Origin: Tautonia plasticadhaerens
GTDB lineage: Bacteria > Planctomycetota > Planctomycetia > Isosphaerales > Isosphaeraceae
Direction of reading: 5' to 3'
Assembly: GCF_007752535.1 (NCBI RefSeq)
Contig: NZ_CP036426.1
Coordinates: 8,308,001-8,372,000 of the forward strand
Length of the DNA: 64,000 nucleotides
Shown here in pieces: positions 10,853 through 23,894 of the stretch. The translations under genes and the position numbers were made by a program. Each line of letters opens with the position of its first letter. The stretch's first letter is position 1. The notes beneath the pieces are model-generated. The model was not told the origin of the DNA. It was given only the letters and a program-made list of their open reading frames with translations, and searched no databases.

Positions 10853-13708
10853 ATGACTATCGCCCCCCCGGGGCCGGGCCGAGCCCCGGCGGCGGGACTG
10901 CCCGGGTCGATCCGATCGGTACTGGCGAGGGTCGGCCGGAGGCTCGACGCGGCGGCGGCGATGCGGGGCCTGGGCCTGACGCTCGGCGTCTCGGCGGCGA
11001 TCGCGGCGGCGGCGATGGCGGTCGACCTGCTCCGGCCGATACCGACCCCGGTGCGATGGGCCGGCTGGCTGGCCTGGGTCGGGGTGTCGTCGACGCTCCT
11101 GATCCGGGGGGTGCTGGGGCCGCTGCTCCGTCGGCACCGGCCCGACGCGCTGGCGGCCGTCGCCGGGAGGGGCCTCCCCGATCGGGGGGCGACGCTGACG
11201 GCGGCCGTCTCCCTGGCCGGCGCGGGGGGGCGGGCCCACGGGTCGCCCGAGCTGATCGCCGCGCTGGTCGACCGGGCGGTCGAGGAGGCCGGCTCGATCG
11301 AGCCGGGCCGGGCCGTCCCGCTGGCCCGGGCCGCCCGTCGGCTGGCGATCGGCCTGGCGGCCGCCGGGGTCGTGGCCCTGCCGGCGATCGTCGCGCCCGA
11401 CCCGTTCGCCGCGCTCTCGGGTCGATTCCTCGCCCCCTGGTCCGACCCCGGCTCGGCCGGCCTGCTGGCGATCGCGGTCGAGCCGGGGGACGCCGTCGTC
11501 GCCCGGGGGGGGCCGCTCGCCGTCTCGGCCTCGGTCCGGGCCCGGTCCCGGCTCGCCGGCCCGCCGCCCGAGACGGCCCTGCTGCAATGGACCGGCCCCG
11601 ACGGCGCGTCCCACGCCCTGGAACTCGGCCCCGGCAAAGGGGAGCCCCGGCGGGACGATGCCCGGGGCTTCGCCCTCACCCTGCCCTCGATCGAGGGGCC
11701 GATCACGTACCGGGTGGTTGCCGGGTCGGCCAGGAGCCGCCCCTACCGGGTCCGGGTGGTCGATCCCCCCCTCGTCTCCTCCCACCGATGGACGATCGCC
11801 CCGCCCCCGTACACAGGCCGGGACGCGGAGGAAGTCGTCGGCCCGGCCGGGGCGACCGCCTGGCAGGACAGCCGGGTCACGATCGTCGCCTCGACGGACC
11901 GCCCCGCCCGTCGCGTCGTCCTCTCCTGGCCGGCCGAGCCCGCCTCGGGGGATCGACACGAGGGCAAATCCATCGACTTCGAGCCCTCCGCCGATGGTCG
12001 GGCCTGGACGGTTGAGGTCTCGGCGACGGCGTCCGGCCCCTACGAGCTGGTCGCGGAGGACGAGCACGGGCTGGTCGGGCGCCCCGGCCGATCGGGGAGG
12101 CTGGAGGTGGTCGTCGACGCCCCCCCTGCCGTCGCCCTGGCCGACGGCGAGGAGGCGGCCGGCCCCGGGGACCGGCTGGCGCTCCCCGTCGCCTCCCGGG
12201 ACGACGTGGCGGTCTGCTCGGCCGAGCTGCACGTCGCCGTCCTCCGGGCCGACGCCGGGCCCGGCTCCCTTCCCGAGCCCCTCGGCGAGCCGATCCCCCT
12301 GGTCCTCGACGGGCTGGGGACCCCGGCGGCCCGGGGGGTGGCCGGGCTGGACCTCGCCCCCCTGGGCCTGGGGGACGGCGACGCCCTCTCGGTCCGGGTC
12401 CGGGTGCTGGACAACCGCCCGCCCCCCCGGGGGCCGAACGAGGGCTGGTCGGCGCCGATTCCGGTGGCGATCGTGGCCGACGTGCAGCAATTCGACGCCG
12501 ATCGGCTCGAAGCCCGGCTCGGGCCGATCCGGGAGGAGCTGCAATCGCTCGCCCGGCAGGCCGCCGAGAACCAGCGCAACCTCCCCCCCCTCCGGGCCGA
12601 CGCCGAGGCCGCACGCCGGGACGACGACGCCTGGTCCGAGCGGAGCGCCGACGACCTCGACTGCCTGGCCGAGGCCGCCCGGGGGCTGGTCGACCGCCTG
12701 CAACTGCTCTCCCGGGCCCTGGAGGCGGACCCCACGCTCGGCCCGCTCGCCGACCCCGTCCGGCAGGCCGCTGAGGCCGAGGCCGACGACGCCCGGCAGG
12801 CGCTCGACGACGCCCGACGCGACGAGGAGGATCCCGACGCCCGCCTCGACGACCTCCGACGCGCCGAGGCGGAACTGGCCGGCGCCTCGCGTCGGCTCGA
12901 CGACCTGAATCGGCGGCTCAATAGCCTCGCCCGGGCCGCCGCCGCCCGACCCGAGCTGGCCGACCTCGCCGGCCGGGAAGGGGAGCTGGCCGACCAGGCC
13001 CGGGCACTCGCCGACGGAGCCGAGGCCGAGGACCAAGCCGAGGACCAGGACGACGACGTTCCTCCGCCCCCGGCCGAACCCCCGGGCGAGGCCAAGCCGA
13101 CGCCGCCGATCGACCCGGAGGCCCTTCGGCGGCTCCGGGAATCCCAGGACCAGCTCTCCCGGGCCCTGGACGAGCTCTTGAGGCGGGCCCCCGCACTCCG
13201 GGACGACGACGCCGCCGCCGAGGCCCGGGCCGACGCCGAGGCCGCCCGCCGGGACCTCGACCGGGCCGCCGCCGGGCCCGACCCCGGCGACCCCTCACGG
13301 TCTCCCTCCGAAGCCGCCCGGGAGGCCGCCGAGGCCATGCGTCGGGCCGCCGAGCAGCTCCGACGGGCCTCCGGGTCCGCCGACCCCTCCTCCCGGGCCG
13401 AGCGGCTCGCCCGGCTCCTGGCCGACCAGGCCGGCGAGCCCTCCTCCCCCTCCGACGGCGACCCCTCCGCCTCCCCCCCTCGATCGATCCCCGCCGGCCC
13501 CTCCGACCCGGCCGCCGCGTTCGGCCTCCGCTCCGAACGCTCCTGGGGAGACCTGCCCGGGCACCTCCGCACCGAGCTGCTCCAGTCCTCCCCCGACCGC
13601 TACCGCCCCGACTACGCCGCCCTCATCCGCCTCTACTTCCGGGAGATCGCCCGAGGCGCCTCCGACCCGGGCCCGGCCCCGGATCCGGGGCCGGGCGGGG
13701 CCCCCTGA
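10853..13708 (+). CDS. Large membrane-anchored coiled-coil protein (DUF4175-like)
   Basis: 951 residues from ATG 10853. This start is chosen because upstream in-frame codons lack the coding pattern and a promoter lies between. The N-terminus has two close membrane segments (GLTLGVSAAIAAAAMAVDLL and the WLAWVGVSSTLLI region) and a third near residue 160 (LAIGLAAAGVVALPAIV). Next come Ig-like extracytoplasmic stretches (for example ITYRVVAGSARSRPYRVRVVDP), then a long Ala/Arg/Asp-rich coiled coil (residues about 550-850). The order fits DUF4175-type planctomycete proteins. The 3' end overlaps the convergent kinase gene by 76 bp. The role is probably envelope-related, by inference. Confidence 0.8.
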   Translation: MTIAPPGPGRAPAAGLPGSIRSVLARVGRRLDAAAAMRGLGLTLGVSAAIAAAAMAVDLLRPIPTPVRWAGWLAWVGVSSTLLIRGVLGPLLRRHRPDALAAVAGRGLPDRGATLTAAVSLAGAGGRAHGSPELIAALVDRAVEEAGSIEPGRAVPLARAARRLAIGLAAAGVVALPAIVAPDPFAALSGRFLAPWSDPGSAGLLAIAVEPGDAVVARGGPLAVSASVRARSRLAGPPPETALLQWTGPDGASHALELGPGKGEPRRDDARGFALTLPSIEGPITYRVVAGSARSRPYRVRVVDPPLVSSHRWTIAPPPYTGRDAEEVVGPAGATAWQDSRVTIVASTDRPARRVVLSWPAEPASGDRHEGKSIDFEPSADGRAWTVEVSATASGPYELVAEDEHGLVGRPGRSGRLEVVVDAPPAVALADGEEAAGPGDRLALPVASRDDVAVCSAELHVAVLRADAGPGSLPEPLGEPIPLVLDGLGTPAARGVAGLDLAPLGLGDGDALSVRVRVLDNRPPPRGPNEGWSAPIPVAIVADVQQFDADRLEARLGPIREELQSLARQAAENQRNLPPLRADAEAARRDDDAWSERSADDLDCLAEAARGLVDRLQLLSRALEADPTLGPLADPVRQAAEAEADDARQALDDARRDEEDPDARLDDLRRAEAELAGASRRLDDLNRRLNSLARAAAARPELADLAGREGELADQARALADGAEAEDQAEDQDDDVPPPPAEPPGEAKPTPPIDPEALRRLRESQDQLSRALDELLRRAPALRDDDAAAEARADAEAARRDLDRAAAGPDPGDPSRSPSEAAREAAEAMRRAAEQLRRASGSADPSSRAERLARLLADQAGEPSSPSDGDPSASPPRSIPAGPSDPAAAFGLRSERSWGDLPGHLRTELLQSSPDRYRPDYAALIRLYFREIARGASDPGPAPDPGPGGAP

Positions 13709-16700
13709 GGCCCGGCCGGGGCCGTCGGGGCCGACGACGCAACATCCGATACCATCCCCCCCGGGGGCTGGTCGGGCGACCCCGACTCGGTGGGCTCCGG
13801 GGGCCCGGCCGAGGGGTCGAGGGGAAAGGCGTCCCGGAGCTTGACCGTGCCGTCGTCGCTGACCGAGACGAGGCGGAGGCCATCGGGGCTGAAGGCGATC
13901 CGGCGGATCCAGCCGTCGTGGTCCTTCAGGGCCAGCAGCTCCAGGCCGCTGGACGGGTCCCAGAGGCGGATCGTCCGGCCGGACCCGGCCGAGGCGAGCC
14001 GTCGGCCGTCGGGGCTGAAGCAGACGGACTGCACCGCGCTGGTGTGACCGGTCAACACCCGGAGGGGCCGGCCCGTCTCCGCCTCCCAGAGCCGCACGGT
14101 CGTGTCGGCGCCGGCCGAGGCGATCGTCCGCCCGTCGGGGGACCAGGAGACGCCGAGGACCGAGCCGAGGTGGCCGTCGAGGGTGCGCCGCACGTCGCCG
14201 GTCGAGGCGTCGAGGATCGCGACCGTCTGGTTGTTGGAGGCCGAGGCGATCGACCGGCCGTCGGGGCTGAAGTCCAGGTCGAGGACGCCGAGGTCCTGGC
14301 CCTCGTAGGTGAACCGGGCCGCCCCGGCCTCCAGGTCCCAGAGCGTCAGCCGGCCGTCGTTGGAGGCCGAGGCGACGGACCGGCCATCGGGGCTGAAGGC
14401 GAGGTCCTTGATCGTGTCGTCGTGGGTGCCGAGCACCCGGAGCAAGGCGCCGGTCCCGGCGTCCCGGAGCGTGACCCGGTGATCGGGGTCCCCGACGGCC
14501 AGGGTCAGGCCGTCGGGGCTGAAGGCGAGGCTGTAGATGCTCCACCCCAGGCGGGGGTCGCCGGGGCCGACCGTCGCGAATTCCAGCCGCCGGTCGGCGT
14601 CCGGCAGGCCCCAGACGAGGACGGTGGCGTCCTCGAAGCCGGCGGCGACCCGGAGGCCGTCCCGGGAGAAGTCGAGGGCGAAGGGGCGGTCGAAGAAGGA
14701 CGCAGGGCCGGGTTCGATCAGAGTCCGGGGCTGGGAGGAGCGCTCCGGGTCCCAGAGCCGCACGGTCGTGTCGGCGCCGGCCGAGGCGATCGTCCGCCCG
14801 TCGGGGGAGTAGGCCAGGGCGTAGATGGAGTCGGTATGCCCCTTGAGCGACCGCAGGGGGCGGCCGGACTCGGCGTCCCAGAGGGTCACCTCGTGGTGGA
14901 TGCCGGCCGAGGCCAGGGTCGAGCCGTCGGGGGCGTAGGCCAGGGCGGCCACGTCGGGGCAATCGGGCCGCAGGCGGTCCAGCTCGCGCCGCCCGACCGG
15001 GTCCCAGAGCCGCACCGTCCCGTCGGCGCCGGCCGAGGCCAGGGTCAGGCCGTCGGGGGAATAGACGAGGTCCCGGATCGCGCCGACGTGGGCCGGGAGC
15101 AGGATCGCCTCGCCCTCGCCTTCGCCCTCGCCCTCGCTGCTCCCCTCGGCCGGCGCCCGGGCGTCGCGGAACGCGATCAGGCCGTCGAAGCCGGCGGAGG
15201 CCAGGGTCAGGCCGTCGGGGCTGAACTCCACGTCGGCGACCGGCCCCGCGTGGGCGTTGGGTAGGTGGCGGAGCAATCGGCCGTCGCGGGCGTCCCAGAT
15301 GAGGATCGAGTGCGCGGCGGTCGCGGCGGCCAGCATCAGGCCGTCGGGGCTGAAGGCCAAGTCGAGCACCGCGACGGGGGGGCCCGGGGGCTCGGCTGGC
15401 TGCTCGACCGAGAACCGCCGACGGCCCGAGTCGACCTCGAAGGCGGCGACGCCCAGATCCGGGCCCTGGGCGGCCAGGGTCAGGCCGTCGGGGCTGAAGG
15501 CCAGGGCCGAGACGCCCAGGCTCAGGGGGCCGGAGAACCGGGGGTCGTCCGACCCGGGCAGCTCCCCCCGGACGGCCCCCGTCGCCGGGTCCCTGAGCAC
15601 CACCCGGCCGCCCCACTGGATCGAGGCGAGGGTCAGGCCGTCGGGGCTGAAGGCGACCCGGCTGACCTCCCGGGAGTGGTCGCGGAAGGTCGCCCGCTCC
15701 TGCCGGGAGAGCCGATGGAGGTAGTGCCACTCCCAGCCGAGCAGGTCCAGGCCCTCCGCCTGGCGCCGGGCCTGTTCGAGCAGCCCCTCGAGCCGGCCGA
15801 CGTCGTTGGCGTCCCAGGCGGCCAGGGCGGTGGCGATCCGGGCGGCGTAGAGGTTGCGCCTCAGCTCGTCCCGGGTCCGGGCGAGCCGGAGGCTGGCCCG
15901 GTCGGCGTCCCGCCGGGCCACCGCCTCGTTGGCGGCGGCCCGCAGCGCCGCCCGCTGGCCGAGGTCGGCGGCCCGGGCCGCGTCCCTCGCCTCCCGGGCC
16001 CTGCGGTCGAGCCGGACGGCCAGGGTGGTCGACACCAGGGCGATCGCCACCAGCAGCCCCAGCACGGCGCCCCCCAGCACCGCCTGCTCCGGGTTCCTCC
16101 GGCACCAGCGGGCCAGCCGCTCGATCGGCCCGATCGGCCTCGCCTCGATCGGCCGGTCGTCCAGGAACCGGCCGAGATCCTCGGCCATCGCCGAGGCGGT
16201 CTGGTACCGCGCCGCCGGGTCCTTCTCGGTCGCCTTGAGGACGATCGTCTCCAGGTCCCGGGGGATCCCCGGGTCGATCGACCTGGGCCGGGGCGGGTCC
16301 TGGGACCGGATCCGGTCGATCAGCTCCAGCCGGTCGACGGCCGGGAAGGCCGGGCGGAGGGTGACCAGCTCGTAGAGGGTCAGCCCCAGCGCGTAGACGT
16401 CGGCCCGGGCGTCCCCCTCGCCCCGGAAGCGTTCGGGGGCCATGTAGCGGGTGGTGCCCAGCAGGTCGCCGGTGCCGGTGAGGGTGAGGTCCTCCTCGGC
16501 GAGGGCCAGGCCGAAGTCGGTGATCCAGGCGATGCCCTCGCCGTCGAGCAGCAGGTTGCTCGGCTTGATGTCGCGGTGGATCACCCCCCGGCCGTGGGCG
16601 TAGGCCAGCCCCTGGGCCACCTGCCGGCCGATCCGGGCGACCGTGCGGAACCACTCCGGGCGCCGGCCCGGGTCGATGTCCGGGATCTCCCCCGCCCCCG

Positions 16701-16848
16701 CCCCCGCCCCCGCCCCGGGCCCCGGGGCGGGGGCGTCCTCCGAGGAGCCGCCCCCGGACGGGTCCCCCTCCCGCTCGCCCGGGTCGTCGAGGATCAGGGT
16801 CTCGTCGTCCCAGGACGAATCGGCCTCGGACCACGCGGGCATCGGCAC
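13633..16848 (-). CDS. WD40-repeat Ser/Thr protein kinase, C-terminal part (catalytic C-lobe, membrane segment, WD40 propeller)
   Basis: This frame holds the catalytic half of a kinase (HRDIKPSN, DFGLALAEE, RYMAPERF, DVYALGLTLYEL), a membrane segment (AVLGGAVLGLLVAIALVS), a coiled linker and about 14 WD40 units of the form FSPDGLTLASAG...VRLWD. It lacks the kinase N-lobe, which is encoded one frame over at 16794-17570. The two frames join if one base is added in the 10-nt C tract of the coding strand (plus-strand 16912-16921) or in the neighbouring 8-nt run. The frame is open well upstream of the GTG at 16848, so that start is arbitrary. The intact product would be a transmembrane kinase of about 1,300 residues with its propeller outside. 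The 3' end overlaps the convergent gene by 76 bp. Confidence 0.85.
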   Translation of the reverse strand: MPMPAWSEADSSWDDETLILDDPGEREGDPSGGGSSEDAPAPGPGAGAGAGAGEIPDIDPGRRPEWFRTVARIGRQVAQGLAYAHGRGVIHRDIKPSNLLLDGEGIAWITDFGLALAEEDLTLTGTGDLLGTTRYMAPERFRGEGDARADVYALGLTLYELVTLRPAFPAVDRLELIDRIRSQDPPRPRSIDPGIPRDLETIVLKATEKDPAARYQTASAMAEDLGRFLDDRPIEARPIGPIERLARWCRRNPEQAVLGGAVLGLLVAIALVSTTLAVRLDRRAREARDAARAADLGQRAALRAAANEAVARRDADRASLRLARTRDELRRNLYAARIATALAAWDANDVGRLEGLLEQARRQAEGLDLLGWEWHYLHRLSRQERATFRDHSREVSRVAFSPDGLTLASIQWGGRVVLRDPATGAVRGELPGSDDPRFSGPLSLGVSALAFSPDGLTLAAQGPDLGVAAFEVDSGRRRFSVEQPAEPPGPPVAVLDLAFSPDGLMLAAATAAHSILIWDARDGRLLRHLPNAHAGPVADVEFSPDGLTLASAGFDGLIAFRDARAPAEGSSEGEGEGEGEAILLPAHVGAIRDLVYSPDGLTLASAGADGTVRLWDPVGRRELDRLRPDCPDVAALAYAPDGSTLASAGIHHEVTLWDAESGRPLRSLKGHTDSIYALAYSPDGRTIASAGADTTVRLWDPERSSQPRTLIEPGPASFFDRPFALDFSRDGLRVAAGFEDATVLVWGLPDADRRLEFATVGPGDPRLGWSIYSLAFSPDGLTLAVGDPDHRVTLRDAGTGALLRVLGTHDDTIKDLAFSPDGRSVASASNDGRLTLWDLEAGAARFTYEGQDLGVLDLDFSPDGRSIASASNNQTVAILDASTGDVRRTLDGHLGSVLGVSWSPDGRTIASAGADTTVRLWEAETGRPLRVLTGHTSAVQSVCFSPDGRRLASAGSGRTIRLWDPSSGLELLALKDHDGWIRRIAFSPDGLRLVSVSDDGTVKLRDAFPLDPSAGPPEPTESGSPDQPPGGMVSDVASSAPTAPAGPQGAPPGPGSGAGPGSEAPRAISRK

Positions 16849-17570
16849 CAGCGACGGCGAGGCGGCGTCCGGCTCCGGCCCGATCGGCCGATCGGGCTCC
16901 CCCCCCGACCCGGGGGGGGGGTCGACGCGACTCCGGGGCCGTCCCCCCGAGGGGGGACGGCCCCGGGGCCCCCCGGGGTCGTGACGCCGAGCCTCCCGGA
17001 GCGGTCCCGGCGCGACCGCAGGCCCTCGATCACCCTGTCCAGGCCCCGGCCGGGGATGAACTGCATGGCGTAGTAGGCCACCTCGCCGTCCCGGCCGACC
17101 TCGAACACCGGCACGATGTTCGAGTGGTGCAGCCGGGCCGCCGAGCGCGCCTCGCGTCGGAACCGCTTGAGCACCTTCGAGTCGAGGGCGACGTGCCGGG
17201 GCAGGATCTTCAGGGCCACCCGACGGCCGAGCGACAGCTGCTCCGCCTCATAGACCACCCCCATCCCCCCCCGCCCGATCTCCCGGAGCAGCCGGTAGTC
17301 CCCCAGGTGCCGGGGCCCGGGAGGCTCTGGGTGCGGCCTCCCCTCGGGGGGCACCGGGCCCTCGGCGTCGGCGTCGGCCTCGGCCTCGGATCCGGACCGG
17401 GCCCGGCTCAGGTCGTCGATCGCCCGGAGCAGGTTCGGCAACCCCCCGGCGAGGCCGGGGTACTCGGAGGAGAGTTCCTCGGCGTCGGGCCGCTCCCCAC
17501 GCCGGAGCCGGCCGAGGATCGCGTCGACCAGCGCCTCGATGGGGTCGCGATCCTGGGTCTCGTCGGCCAT
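16794..17570 (-). CDS. WD40-repeat Ser/Thr protein kinase, N-terminal part (N-lobe), frameshifted from the rest
   Basis: Starts at ATG 17570 (MADETQDRDPIEALVDAIL). After an acidic leader comes the kinase N-lobe: YRLLREIGRGGMGVVYEAE (Gly loop), VALKILP with the catalytic Lys, and FIPGRGLDRVIEGLRSRR. The frame then runs into Pro/Gly/Arg-rich sequence and stops at 16794 without the HRD or DFG motifs, which continue in the frame of 13633-16848. Planctomycete kinases of this type have a low-complexity insert between lobes, and the frame break lies inside that insert. Either the gene is out of frame in this genome copy or one base is missing from the assembly. It is divergent from the sigma factor at 17840. 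Confidence 0.8.
   Translation of the reverse strand: MADETQDRDPIEALVDAILGRLRRGERPDAEELSSEYPGLAGGLPNLLRAIDDLSRARSGSEAEADADAEGPVPPEGRPHPEPPGPRHLGDYRLLREIGRGGMGVVYEAEQLSLGRRVALKILPRHVALDSKVLKRFRREARSAARLHHSNIVPVFEVGRDGEVAYYAMQFIPGRGLDRVIEGLRSRRDRSGRLGVTTPGGPGAVPPRGDGPGVASTPPPGRGGSPIGRSGRSRTPPRRRWCRCPRGPRPIRPGTTRP
16912..16921. repeat. G10 homopolymer at the kinase frame break
   Basis: Ten consecutive G on the plus strand (C10 in the kinase coding strand), with an 8-nt C run at 16899-16906 close by. Adding one base at either run joins the N-lobe frame to the catalytic frame. Confidence 0.8.
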
Positions 17571-17646
17571 GCGGATCCGGCGCCTCGGGGCCTGGGCTCG
17601 GGCGTCCCGCCCCCTCCCATCCCGGAGGGCGAGACGCCACCATGCC

Positions 17647-17675
17647 AGGATAAGGCGCGGGGCCGATCCCCGCCA
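17647..17675 (-). promoter_or_regulatory. Possible promoter of the split Ser/Thr kinase gene
   Basis: Minus strand TGGCGG (17670-17675), a 17-nt spacer and TATCCT (17647-17652), 77 nt before ATG 17570. Confidence 0.4.
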
Positions 17676-17839
17676 GGGGCCGAGCCGCCCCCTACCGGCC
17701 CCTGGCCGGGGCGCCCGGGGCCGGCGGCGTCCGGCCCGATCGTCCGACCATCGCCCCGGCCGCACCGGGCCGTTGAACCGGGACGGCCCGACGGCGACTC
17801 CCCTGCTGTGGGCCATGCTCTGCGGAAGGGGGAGGACCC

Positions 17840-22191: not shown

Positions 22192-23637
22192 TCACGCGCC
22201 GGTTCCGTTGAGTCCACCGCGATCCAGCCCACCGCGATCACGCCCCCCGACGGCCCCGGCCATCTCGGCCGGGGGCGGGGGATCGACCCGGTGGTCGCAC
22301 TCCAGATCCCAGTCCATCAGCAGCGTCCCGCCCCGGCGGGCCACGTCGAGCCACAGGTTGCAGTCGTAGCCGACGGCGTCCCCGGCCGACCGGGCCGGGC
22401 CGGCCAGGAAGACCTCGCGGCGGACCAGGGCGCACCCCAGCCCGGCACCCCCGATCGCCTCCAGCCCGGAGCCGCCCCTCAGGTGGATCAGCTCCCCCGT
22501 ATCCAGGTCCCGGTACCGCCAGGCCACCCGGTGGTCCGGCACGACTCGGGACCGGTAGCTCGCCGACACGCCGTCGACGTCCGGGCCCATCCGGTCGAGC
22601 AGCCGGTCGAGCGCCTCGGGGGGCGGGATCACGTCGTCCTCCAAACACCAGACCAGGTCCGTCCGGACCAGCTGGCCGATCCGGTTCCAGATCGCCCCGA
22701 CCCGGTCGTTCAGCTCCCGGCCGTGGCGCCGGCCCCCCTGCTGGCCGAGGACCGGCCTCGCGTCGGCCAGCTCCCGGGCCGACAGGCCCGGCACCGCCGG
22801 CCTCGGGTCCCGGACGTAGGAGACCCCGGCATACCCCTCCTGCCCCATCAGCCAGTGCCTCAGCCGGCGGCCGACGGCGACCGACCCGGAATTGTCGTAG
22901 AACAGGACGTGCAACTGCGACGCCGGGAACGTCTGCCGTGAGACGGCGTCGAGCAGCGCGTCGATCAGGGGCTCGCGCCCCGACCAGGGGATCGCCAGCG
23001 TCACCAGGTCGGTCGGGTCGATCGTCCATCGCCAGTCGTCCCGCCGGGGGGACCGCTGGTTGGCCCGGCAGACGCCCGAGTCGTGCCGGAAATAGTAGTA
23101 GTCGACCGGCGCGGGGACCATCCGCCAGCCGTGGTCCCGCAGCCGACGCCAGAGCGCCCAGTCGTCGTGCGGGACCAGGCCGTCCCGGTCGGGCTCGAAG
23201 ACCGGCCAGCCGCCAACCTGCCGCAGCGCGTCGGACCGGATCAGCGCCGGCACCCCGGAGATGTTCGTCCTCCCCAGCAGGGCGGGCTCGAACGGGTGGT
23301 CCCACCGGCCCTGGGACTCGCCGCAGAACCGCAGGCGGGGGTAGGAGGCGGCCGCCCGGCAATCGGTCTCGATCGTGGCGAGCAGGGCCTCCAGGTAGTC
23401 CGGGGGCACCATGTCGTCGTCGTCGAGGAAGCAGAGGTAGGGGAGGTCCCCCAGCACCCTCAGCCCGACGTTCCTCGCCGGGTTGCCGCTCAGGCCGCAG
23501 CCGACCGCAGCCCGGAGGTACTCGACCCCGGGATAGCGCCGGGCGACCCGCTCGGCCGAGGGGTCGTCGCCGTCGCCGTCGTCGACCACGAGGATCCGAT
23601 CGGGCCGGTGGGTCTGCATCATCAGCGAGCCGAGCAT
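22192..23637 (-). CDS. Tandem-domain family 2-like glycosyltransferase, frameshifted near its N-terminus
   Basis: The open part carries a GT-A domain (ILVVDDGDGDDPSAERVA, YLCFLDDDDMVPPDYL, HDDWALWRRL), then a second GT-like domain (LVTLAIPWSGREPLIDALLD, FYDNSGS, WCLEDDVIPPPEALDRLL). The first strand of domain one (GAVIPTRNRAEWLPHM) is encoded in frame upstream of ATG 23637, so that ATG is not the true start. The frame is open up to a stop at 23818-23820. The likely start is ATG 23894, one frame over; adding one base to the G10 tract (plus C10, 23799-23808) joins both into about 568 residues. It would transfer sugars from nucleotide donors to an unknown acceptor. Confidence 0.85.
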   Translation of the reverse strand: MLGSLMMQTHRPDRILVVDDGDGDDPSAERVARRYPGVEYLRAAVGCGLSGNPARNVGLRVLGDLPYLCFLDDDDMVPPDYLEALLATIETDCRAAASYPRLRFCGESQGRWDHPFEPALLGRTNISGVPALIRSDALRQVGGWPVFEPDRDGLVPHDDWALWRRLRDHGWRMVPAPVDYYYFRHDSGVCRANQRSPRRDDWRWTIDPTDLVTLAIPWSGREPLIDALLDAVSRQTFPASQLHVLFYDNSGSVAVGRRLRHWLMGQEGYAGVSYVRDPRPAVPGLSARELADARPVLGQQGGRRHGRELNDRVGAIWNRIGQLVRTDLVWCLEDDVIPPPEALDRLLDRMGPDVDGVSASYRSRVVPDHRVAWRYRDLDTGELIHLRGGSGLEAIGGAGLGCALVRREVFLAGPARSAGDAVGYDCNLWLDVARRGGTLLMDWDLECDHRVDPPPPAEMAGAVGGRDRGGLDRGGLNGTGA

Positions 23638-23894
23638 GTGCGGCAGCCATTCGGCCCGGTTCCGGGTCGGGATGACCGCGCCGACCCGGCGCGGGAGCGT
23701 CCCCCTGGCGTACCACGTCCCCGGCCCCGACGGCCCGCCCTCGGCGGCACCGCCGCCGAGCGGTTCCGAGGTGCCGTAGAGCGATCGGGACGCCTTCGCC
23801 CCCCCCCCGAGCCGGACTCAGCCGACGACTTCGAGTCGCCGTATCGGCCGGGGGAAACGGAGCGATCGCCATAAGAAGCGGGGGAGCTGGACAT
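23622..23894 (-). CDS. N-terminal fragment of the frameshifted glycosyltransferase
   Basis: ATG 23894 begins MSSSPASYGDRSVSPGRYGD, followed by a Ser/Gly-rich stretch that reads into the G10 tract. Past the tract this frame turns Arg/Pro-rich with atypical codons, whereas the +1-base frame continues as AKASRSLYGTSEPLGGG and leads straight into the GT-A domain. This fragment is therefore probably the true N-terminus only as far as the tract. No clear ribosome binding site precedes it. Confidence 0.55.
   Translation of the reverse strand: MSSSPASYGDRSVSPGRYGDSKSSAESGSGGGRRRPDRSTAPRNRSAAVPPRAGRRGRGRGTPGGRSRAGSARSSRPGTGPNGCRTCSAR
23799..23808. repeat. C10 homopolymer at the glycosyltransferase frame break
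   Basis: Ten consecutive C on the plus strand (G10 in the coding strand). One more base would fuse the N-terminal frame with the glycosyltransferase frame. Same length and same missing-base phase as the tract at 16912-16921. Confidence 0.8.

What the first reader, a model, noticed from the sequence alone, without database searches (positions are those of the whole stretch)
23622..23894. Glycosyltransferase broken the same way at a second 10-nt tract
The GT-A start strand (GAVIPTRNRAEWL) is in frame upstream of the only available ATG (23637), and the frame hits a stop at 23818-23820. The ATG 23894 frame joins it if the G10 tract (plus C10 23799-23808) has one more base. The joined sequence reads smoothly with good GC3 bias.
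Basis: seen in the sequence. Interest (0 to 1): 0.65.

Follow-up and report, generated by a model that had tools for sequence, protein, structure and literature searches.

The report
Likely sequencing slip in glycosyltransferase gene
A sugar-transferring enzyme gene in a plastic-adhering planctomycete looks broken at a run of ten identical letters, but a gene for an enzyme that bacteria normally cannot live without has the same apparent break, so this is most likely a counting error in the published genome rather than a dead gene or a switch.

Summary
C10 at 23799-23808 (G10 in the gene's sense) separates a leader frame (ATG 23894) from a family-2 glycosyltransferase frame (22192-23817, minus). 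That frame has no ATG, GTG, TTG or CTG in the 46 open codons before its first GT-A strand; ATG 23637 lies inside the fold. Two same-genus orthologues (75-76% identity) are unbroken, carry the strand, start upstream and lack the tract. The assembled tract is offset as if one base short.

The genome (9,395,224 bp, 6 replicons) matches Tautonia plasticadhaerens ElP. I examined all 112 of its G/C tracts of 10 or more bases: 64 lie in uninterrupted coding frames, and at least 10 separate two frames of one gene, 8 of them with this offset. One of the ten is the only detected thymidylate kinase: its ATG, aligned with a relative's, is cut off by a C10 in the same way. A living strain needs that enzyme, so at least that break is an assembly undercount or is rescued in expression. 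The glycosyltransferase most likely belongs to the same artefact class (about 0.62). A real recent slip, fixed or phase-variable, remains possible: a sister genome keeps only a stop-containing fragment. Run lengths show no excess of long tracts.

The parts
22192..23817 (-). Glycosyltransferase family 2 frame: 541 open codons plus stop, no usable start codon before the GT-A domain
   Evidence: (PF00535, E 9.7e-26)
23799..23808 (-). G10 tract (C10 on +) at which the leader frame and the GT frame are out of register
23809..23894 (-). Leader frame from ATG 23894 (MSSSPASYGDRSVSPGRYGDSKSSAESG...); GTG 23900 is a second possible start
23818..23820 (-). TGA that closes the GT frame upstream of the tract
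23635..23637 (-). First ATG in the GT frame; lies after GAVIPTRNRAEWLPH, inside the GT-A fold, so not a plausible start
16912..16921 (-). The window's only other 10-base G/C tract; splits a Ser/Thr kinase-WD40 gene with the same offset
   Evidence: orthologues in G040, G041 and G042 have single long open frames

Best explanation
The locus is an ordinary family-2 glycosyltransferase gene with a short variable leader containing YG repeats. It starts near ATG 23894 and is probably intact in the organism. The deposited assembly probably undercounts the long G tract by one base, which splits the gene on paper. Similar apparent breaks hit at least nine other genes at G/C tracts of 10-12 bases in this assembly, including the only detected dTMP kinase. 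Shown: the frame offset, unbroken orthologues, purifying constraint on the GT frame, and the same defect in dTMP kinase. Inferred: that the base count in the assembly, not the genome, is at fault here.
For: (1) Orthologues in 2 of 3 same-genus genomes are unbroken and start upstream. (2) The GT frame is constrained: dN/dS 0.176/0.856 against L010 and 0.174/0.885 against L009, compared with 0.047/0.311 between L009 and L010; GC3 0.95; no other disabling change in 541 codons. (3) dTMP kinase is a single match in the genome (TIGR00041; 150.8 bits). Its ATGAGCAC start aligns with that of G042, a C10 follows at once, and the kinase frame has no start-like codon in the 85 open codons before FLCLEGPDGAGKST. 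(4) The TIGR00118 acetolactate synthase, over cut-off in all 3 relatives, is split at a C12. (5) Of all 112 tracts of 10 or more bases, at least 10 split a gene and 8 of these 10 have the 'one short (or two long)' offset. The share broken rises with length: 6 broken to 55 intact at exactly 10; 4 broken to 9 intact at 11-13.
Against: No reads or second assembly of this strain could be examined, and I could not learn the sequencing platform (the genome paper of Wiegand et al. 2020 is not held). Most 10-base tracts are in frame (55 of 94), so this assembly is usually right at this length. Replication slippage also grows with length and could give the same pattern, dTMP kinase aside. In sister genome G042 the gene survives only as a fragment (108 query residues, stop inside), so it is dispensable in the genus and could really be lost here. 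The other nine breaks rest on codon statistics and reading by eye, apart from domain matches on pieces of some.
Confidence: 0.62

Rival explanations
1. Real, recent loss-of-function indel: replication slippage at the long G run put the gene out of frame in this strain (a young pseudogene).
For: The tract is absent from both unbroken orthologues, so it arose in this lineage in a variable Gly/Ser-rich linker. The gene is reduced to a stop-containing fragment at the same place (between enolase and the kinase-LRR gene) in G042. Most 10-base tracts are called in frame.
Against: 541 clean codons, GC3 0.95 and dN/dS about 0.2 leave no sign of decay. The same offset occurs in dTMP kinase, which cannot be a pseudogene in a living strain.
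Confidence: 0.17
2. Phase-variable (contingency) locus: the culture holds a mixture of tract lengths and the enzyme is switched on and off by replication slippage, as described for G-tracts of pilus genes in high-GC Bifidobacterium breve.
For: A G10 tract near the start of a putative surface-glycan gene is the classic layout (recalled). PMC9187656 (passages read) describes G9-G12 ON/OFF tracts and a reference whose deposited tract length is not the majority one.
Against: Run lengths fall off smoothly (346, 94, 13, 4, 1 for 9 to 13 bases; the first value derived) with no excess of long runs, and long runs are depleted in the window. The tract is not conserved in orthologues. The affected set includes housekeeping enzymes (dTMP kinase, acetolactate synthase).
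Confidence: 0.12
3. The gene as assembled is expressed through slippage of RNA polymerase or the ribosome on the G10 run.
For: It would reconcile real out-of-frame tracts with a living cell, including dTMP kinase.
Against: Neither the tract nor a frame transition is conserved in orthologues. Most long tracts sit in frame (64 of 112), which argues against free tolerance. PMC1088944 (search listing only) treats A and T runs.
Confidence: 0.07

Closest known systems
Base-count (indel) errors at homopolymers in assemblies, singleton frameshifted genes in the sense of Antonov et al. 2013 (PMC3711429, passages read)
   Same: Frame break at a homopolymer, absent from homologues, in a conserved gene. 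That paper expects singletons confirmed by BLASTp to be sequencing errors rather than genuine indels.
   Different: Here a housekeeping gene of the same genome acts as internal control. No reads were examined.
G-tract replication-slippage switch of Bifidobacterium breve pilus genes (PMC9187656, passages read)
   Same: G10-G11 tract within the first ORF, second ORF without an active start
   Different: There the tract recurs in pilus clusters across the genus and length mixtures were measured; here the tract is private to one species among those compared and no mixture was measured.
Glycosyltransferase family 2 (PF00535)
   Same: The N-terminal GT-A part (residues 48-175 of the frame) matches; weak resemblance to chondroitin synthase and other solved glycosyltransferases
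   Different: No curated NCBIfam model reaches its cut-off; the best is MftF at 50.6 bits against 280.

Membership tests
Homopolymer undercount in an assembly | Frame offset located at a long homopolymer, conserved coding on both sides | tested here: met
   leader homology to orthologues is weak (shuffle p 0.005 with L009, 0.136 with L010)
Homopolymer undercount in an assembly | Same defect in genes that cannot be lost | tested here: met
   Only detected dTMP kinase; essentiality is established knowledge, not tested here
Homopolymer undercount in an assembly | Raw reads disagree with the consensus at the tract | not testable with these tools
   No reads held
Phase-variable contingency locus | Excess of long tracts over the run-length trend of the genome | tested here: not met
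   346/94/13/4/1 for 9-13 bases; 6 vs 20.6 expected in the window
Phase-variable contingency locus | Tract conserved at the same place in relatives | tested here: not met
   Absent in L009 and L010
Phase-variable contingency locus | Mixed tract lengths within a culture | not testable with these tools
   needs reads
Pseudogene | Relaxed constraint or further disabling changes | tested here: not met
   dN/dS about 0.2, no stops in 541 codons; a very recent break would not show
Glycosyltransferase family 2 | GT-A N-terminal strand and Pfam PF00535 above its cut-off | tested here: met
   91.1 bits against 23.3

The most novel reading that the evidence does not exclude
The assembled tract lengths are real, and this planctomycete expresses out-of-frame genes, dTMP kinase among them, by slippage of RNA polymerase or ribosomes on long G/C runs, so that its genome carries tolerated frame breaks in functional genes.
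Probability: 0.06. Interest if true: 0.75.

Novelty: not a real feature. Interest (0 to 1): 0.16.

Why it matters
It warns against reading frame breaks at G/C tracts of 10 or more bases in this reference as gene loss or phase variation: at least 10 of 112 such tracts split genes, one of them dTMP kinase. If the tract lengths were instead confirmed by reads, the same list would become a ready test set for slippage-based decoding in Planctomycetota.

Tried and rejected
Rejected: start at ATG 23637 (inside the fold). ATG 23872 as the leader start (opposite offset; poorer GC3 and coding score; no resemblance to orthologue leaders beyond chance). A general failure of the assembly at every 10-base run (55 of 94 exact-10 tracts lie in uninterrupted frames). 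L127, flagged, is a false positive: an ATGA gene overlap that is in frame; L220 is likewise a gene overlap; L184 and L187, flagged, look like gene ends and were not counted as breaks.

Led nowhere: names of relatives from genome contigs (two distant hits only); sequencing platform from the literature; literature terms (0 papers each). Comparison with G042 (9 intact, 20 unresolved, 0 broken of the 29 tracts classified; 30 of its 43 had loci and 1 was dropped near a contig end) and G001 (2 intact, 7 unresolved of 9 tracts, of 23 in that genome) is too small to tell whether relatives differ. A first G042 run missed loci in the other orientation and was replaced.

Limits of the census: codon statistics were trained on the same genome. 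Six of the 10 breaks (GT, kinase, dTMP kinase, NUDIX, sulfotransferase-like, methyltransferase) came from reading the unresolved cases by eye, and only the cases with some coding signal were printed. Pfam supports both pieces of the sulfotransferase-like gene only weakly (E 0.074 and 0.029), and only the first piece of NUDIX and of the methyltransferase. A stricter uniform classifier resolved fewer tracts: 43 intact, 6 flagged, 45 unresolved of 94 at exactly 10, and 8 intact, 4 flagged, 6 unresolved of 18 at 11 or more.

Full report
What is there. On the minus strand a 541-codon frame (22192-23817) encodes a family-2 glycosyltransferase (PF00535 at 91.1 bits against a cut-off of 23.3; remote relatives of solved structure include chondroitin synthase). 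It is closed upstream by TGA 23820-23818 and contains no ATG, GTG, TTG or CTG in the 46 codons before the first GT-A strand AVIPTRNRAEW. ATG 23637, the first in frame, comes 14 residues into that conserved block. A leader frame from ATG 23894 runs into the G10 tract (C10 on +, 23799-23808) and is out of register with the GT frame by an amount equivalent to the tract being one base short or two long (coordinates).

Whose genome. The window lies at 8308001-8372000 of contig 1 of a 9,395,224-base genome in 6 contigs. The description of Tautonia plasticadhaerens ElP gives 9,395,224 bp, a chromosome of 8.67 Mb and five plasmids (PMC7716859, passages read), so I take it to be that strain.

Homologues. 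A search of 45 family genomes (G000 included) gave two near full-length orthologues in the same genus: G041 (L009, 75%) and G040 (L010, 76%); the third same-genus genome, G042, has a fragment (L013, 108 query residues, one TAG). In G042 this fragment lies between enolase and the LRR end of the neighbouring kinase gene, so the locus is decayed there (the neighbours were named by eye from the translation). L009 and L010 are unbroken, contain VVIPTRNRPxW, have several in-frame ATGs upstream, and lack the G tract. Their leaders contain YGD/YGE repeats. The window has SYGD and RYGD before the tract and LYGT after it, and the last aligns to the repeats in an unconstrained alignment. The shuffle support for the leader before the tract is modest: p 0.005 against L009 and 0.136 against L010 for the ATG 23894 frame; 0.21 to 0.74 for the other two frames. 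Over 494 codons dN and dS (NG86) are 0.176 and 0.856 with L010, 0.174 and 0.885 with L009, and 0.047 and 0.311 between L009 and L010; GC3 is 0.95. The gene was therefore under purifying constraint for most of its history, and nothing else disables it.

Is the tract special? The genome has 94 runs of exactly 10 G/C, 13 of 11, 4 of 12 and 1 of 13 (counted); 346 of 9 follows from the 594 overlapping nine-base matches. This is a smooth decline. In the window nine-base matches are below the dinucleotide expectation (6 against 20.6). There is no class of enriched long tracts of the kind expected of contingency loci.

Census of frame continuity. I fetched the surroundings of all 112 tracts of 10 or more bases and decoded coding frames with a codon model trained on the same genome. 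64 of 112 lie in an uninterrupted frame, 4 were flagged as broken, and 44 were noncoding, at an edge or at a strand switch. Reading those of the 44 that had coding signal added six breaks: this glycosyltransferase, the window's kinase, a thymidylate kinase, a NUDIX protein, a sulfotransferase-like gene and a methyltransferase. That makes at least 10 of 112, with 8 of the 10 offset as if one base short (or two long). For comparison, same-strand frame changes at 5-base runs are 72 of 7056 runs with both sides coding on one strand, a background that includes gene overlaps. One case flagged (L127) turned out to be an ordinary ATGA overlap.

The internal control. The genome has one dTMP kinase match (TIGR00041; PF02223 138.5 bits). 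In G042 the gene begins ATGAGCACGACGCCC...; here ATGAGCACT is followed at once by C10, after which the kinase frame is in another register. That frame has no start-like codon in the 85 open codons before FLCLEGPDGAGKST. dTMP kinase is required for DNA synthesis (established knowledge), so a living strain must make it. Either the assembly undercounts this tract or the cell rescues it. The TIGR00118 acetolactate synthase, over the family cut-off in the three relatives, is likewise split at a C12; other full-length homologues exist in the genome, so this case is supportive only.

Weighing. An undercount explains dTMP kinase, the direction of the offset and the rise with length (at 10: 6 broken and 55 intact; at 11-13: 4 broken and 9 intact) without new biology. 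A real slip in the glycosyltransferase cannot be excluded, because the gene is dispensable in the genus (G042) and 10-base runs are slippage-prone. A switch, as in Bifidobacterium breve pilus clusters (PMC9187656, passages read), lacks support from run-length excess or conservation. That paper also reports a reference whose deposited G11 was not the majority length in culture. PMC3711429 (passages read) expects unclustered, homologue-confirmed frame breaks to be mostly sequencing errors. I could not see the reads or the platform.

Verdict. Observation confirmed. Most likely an assembly base-count error in an ordinary glycosyltransferase gene (0.62), with genuine indel, phase variation and slippage as rivals. 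Low interest, with one useful by-product: a list of tract-split genes in this reference, dTMP kinase among them.

Noticed in passing
window 16912-16921 (minus), genes 13633-16848 and 16794-17816: Ser/Thr kinase-WD40 gene split at C10 with the same offset; orthologues near the GT gene in G040, G041 and G042 have single open frames of 1283-1395 codons.
   Followed up: partly
G000:C1 2800238-2800247 (L147 9239-9248; L246): The only detected dTMP kinase gene is cut off from its ATG by a C10 tract in the assembly.
   Followed up: yes
G000:C1 1406876-1408593 (L221 around 9428): Acetolactate synthase large subunit (TIGR00118) split at a C12; unbroken in three same-genus genomes.
   Followed up: partly
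L189 16903 (C11), L192 9956 (G10), L219 9421 (G10, plasmid contig C2), L176 10683 (G11), L194 9351 (C10), own chromosome 171617 (G11): Further apparent frame breaks at long G/C tracts: NUDIX, sulfotransferase-like, methyltransferase and three others.
   Followed up: partly
L013 (G042:C122 141531-141854): Stop-containing fragment of the same glycosyltransferase between enolase and the LRR part of the neighbouring kinase gene: decay of the locus in a same-genus genome.
   Followed up: partly
window 22192-23000 (minus), residues about 270-510 of the GT: The second half of the protein (IPWSGREPLIDALLDAVSRQTFP...WCLEDDVIPP) looks by eye like a second GT-A-like module, though Pfam matches only the first half.
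   Followed up: no
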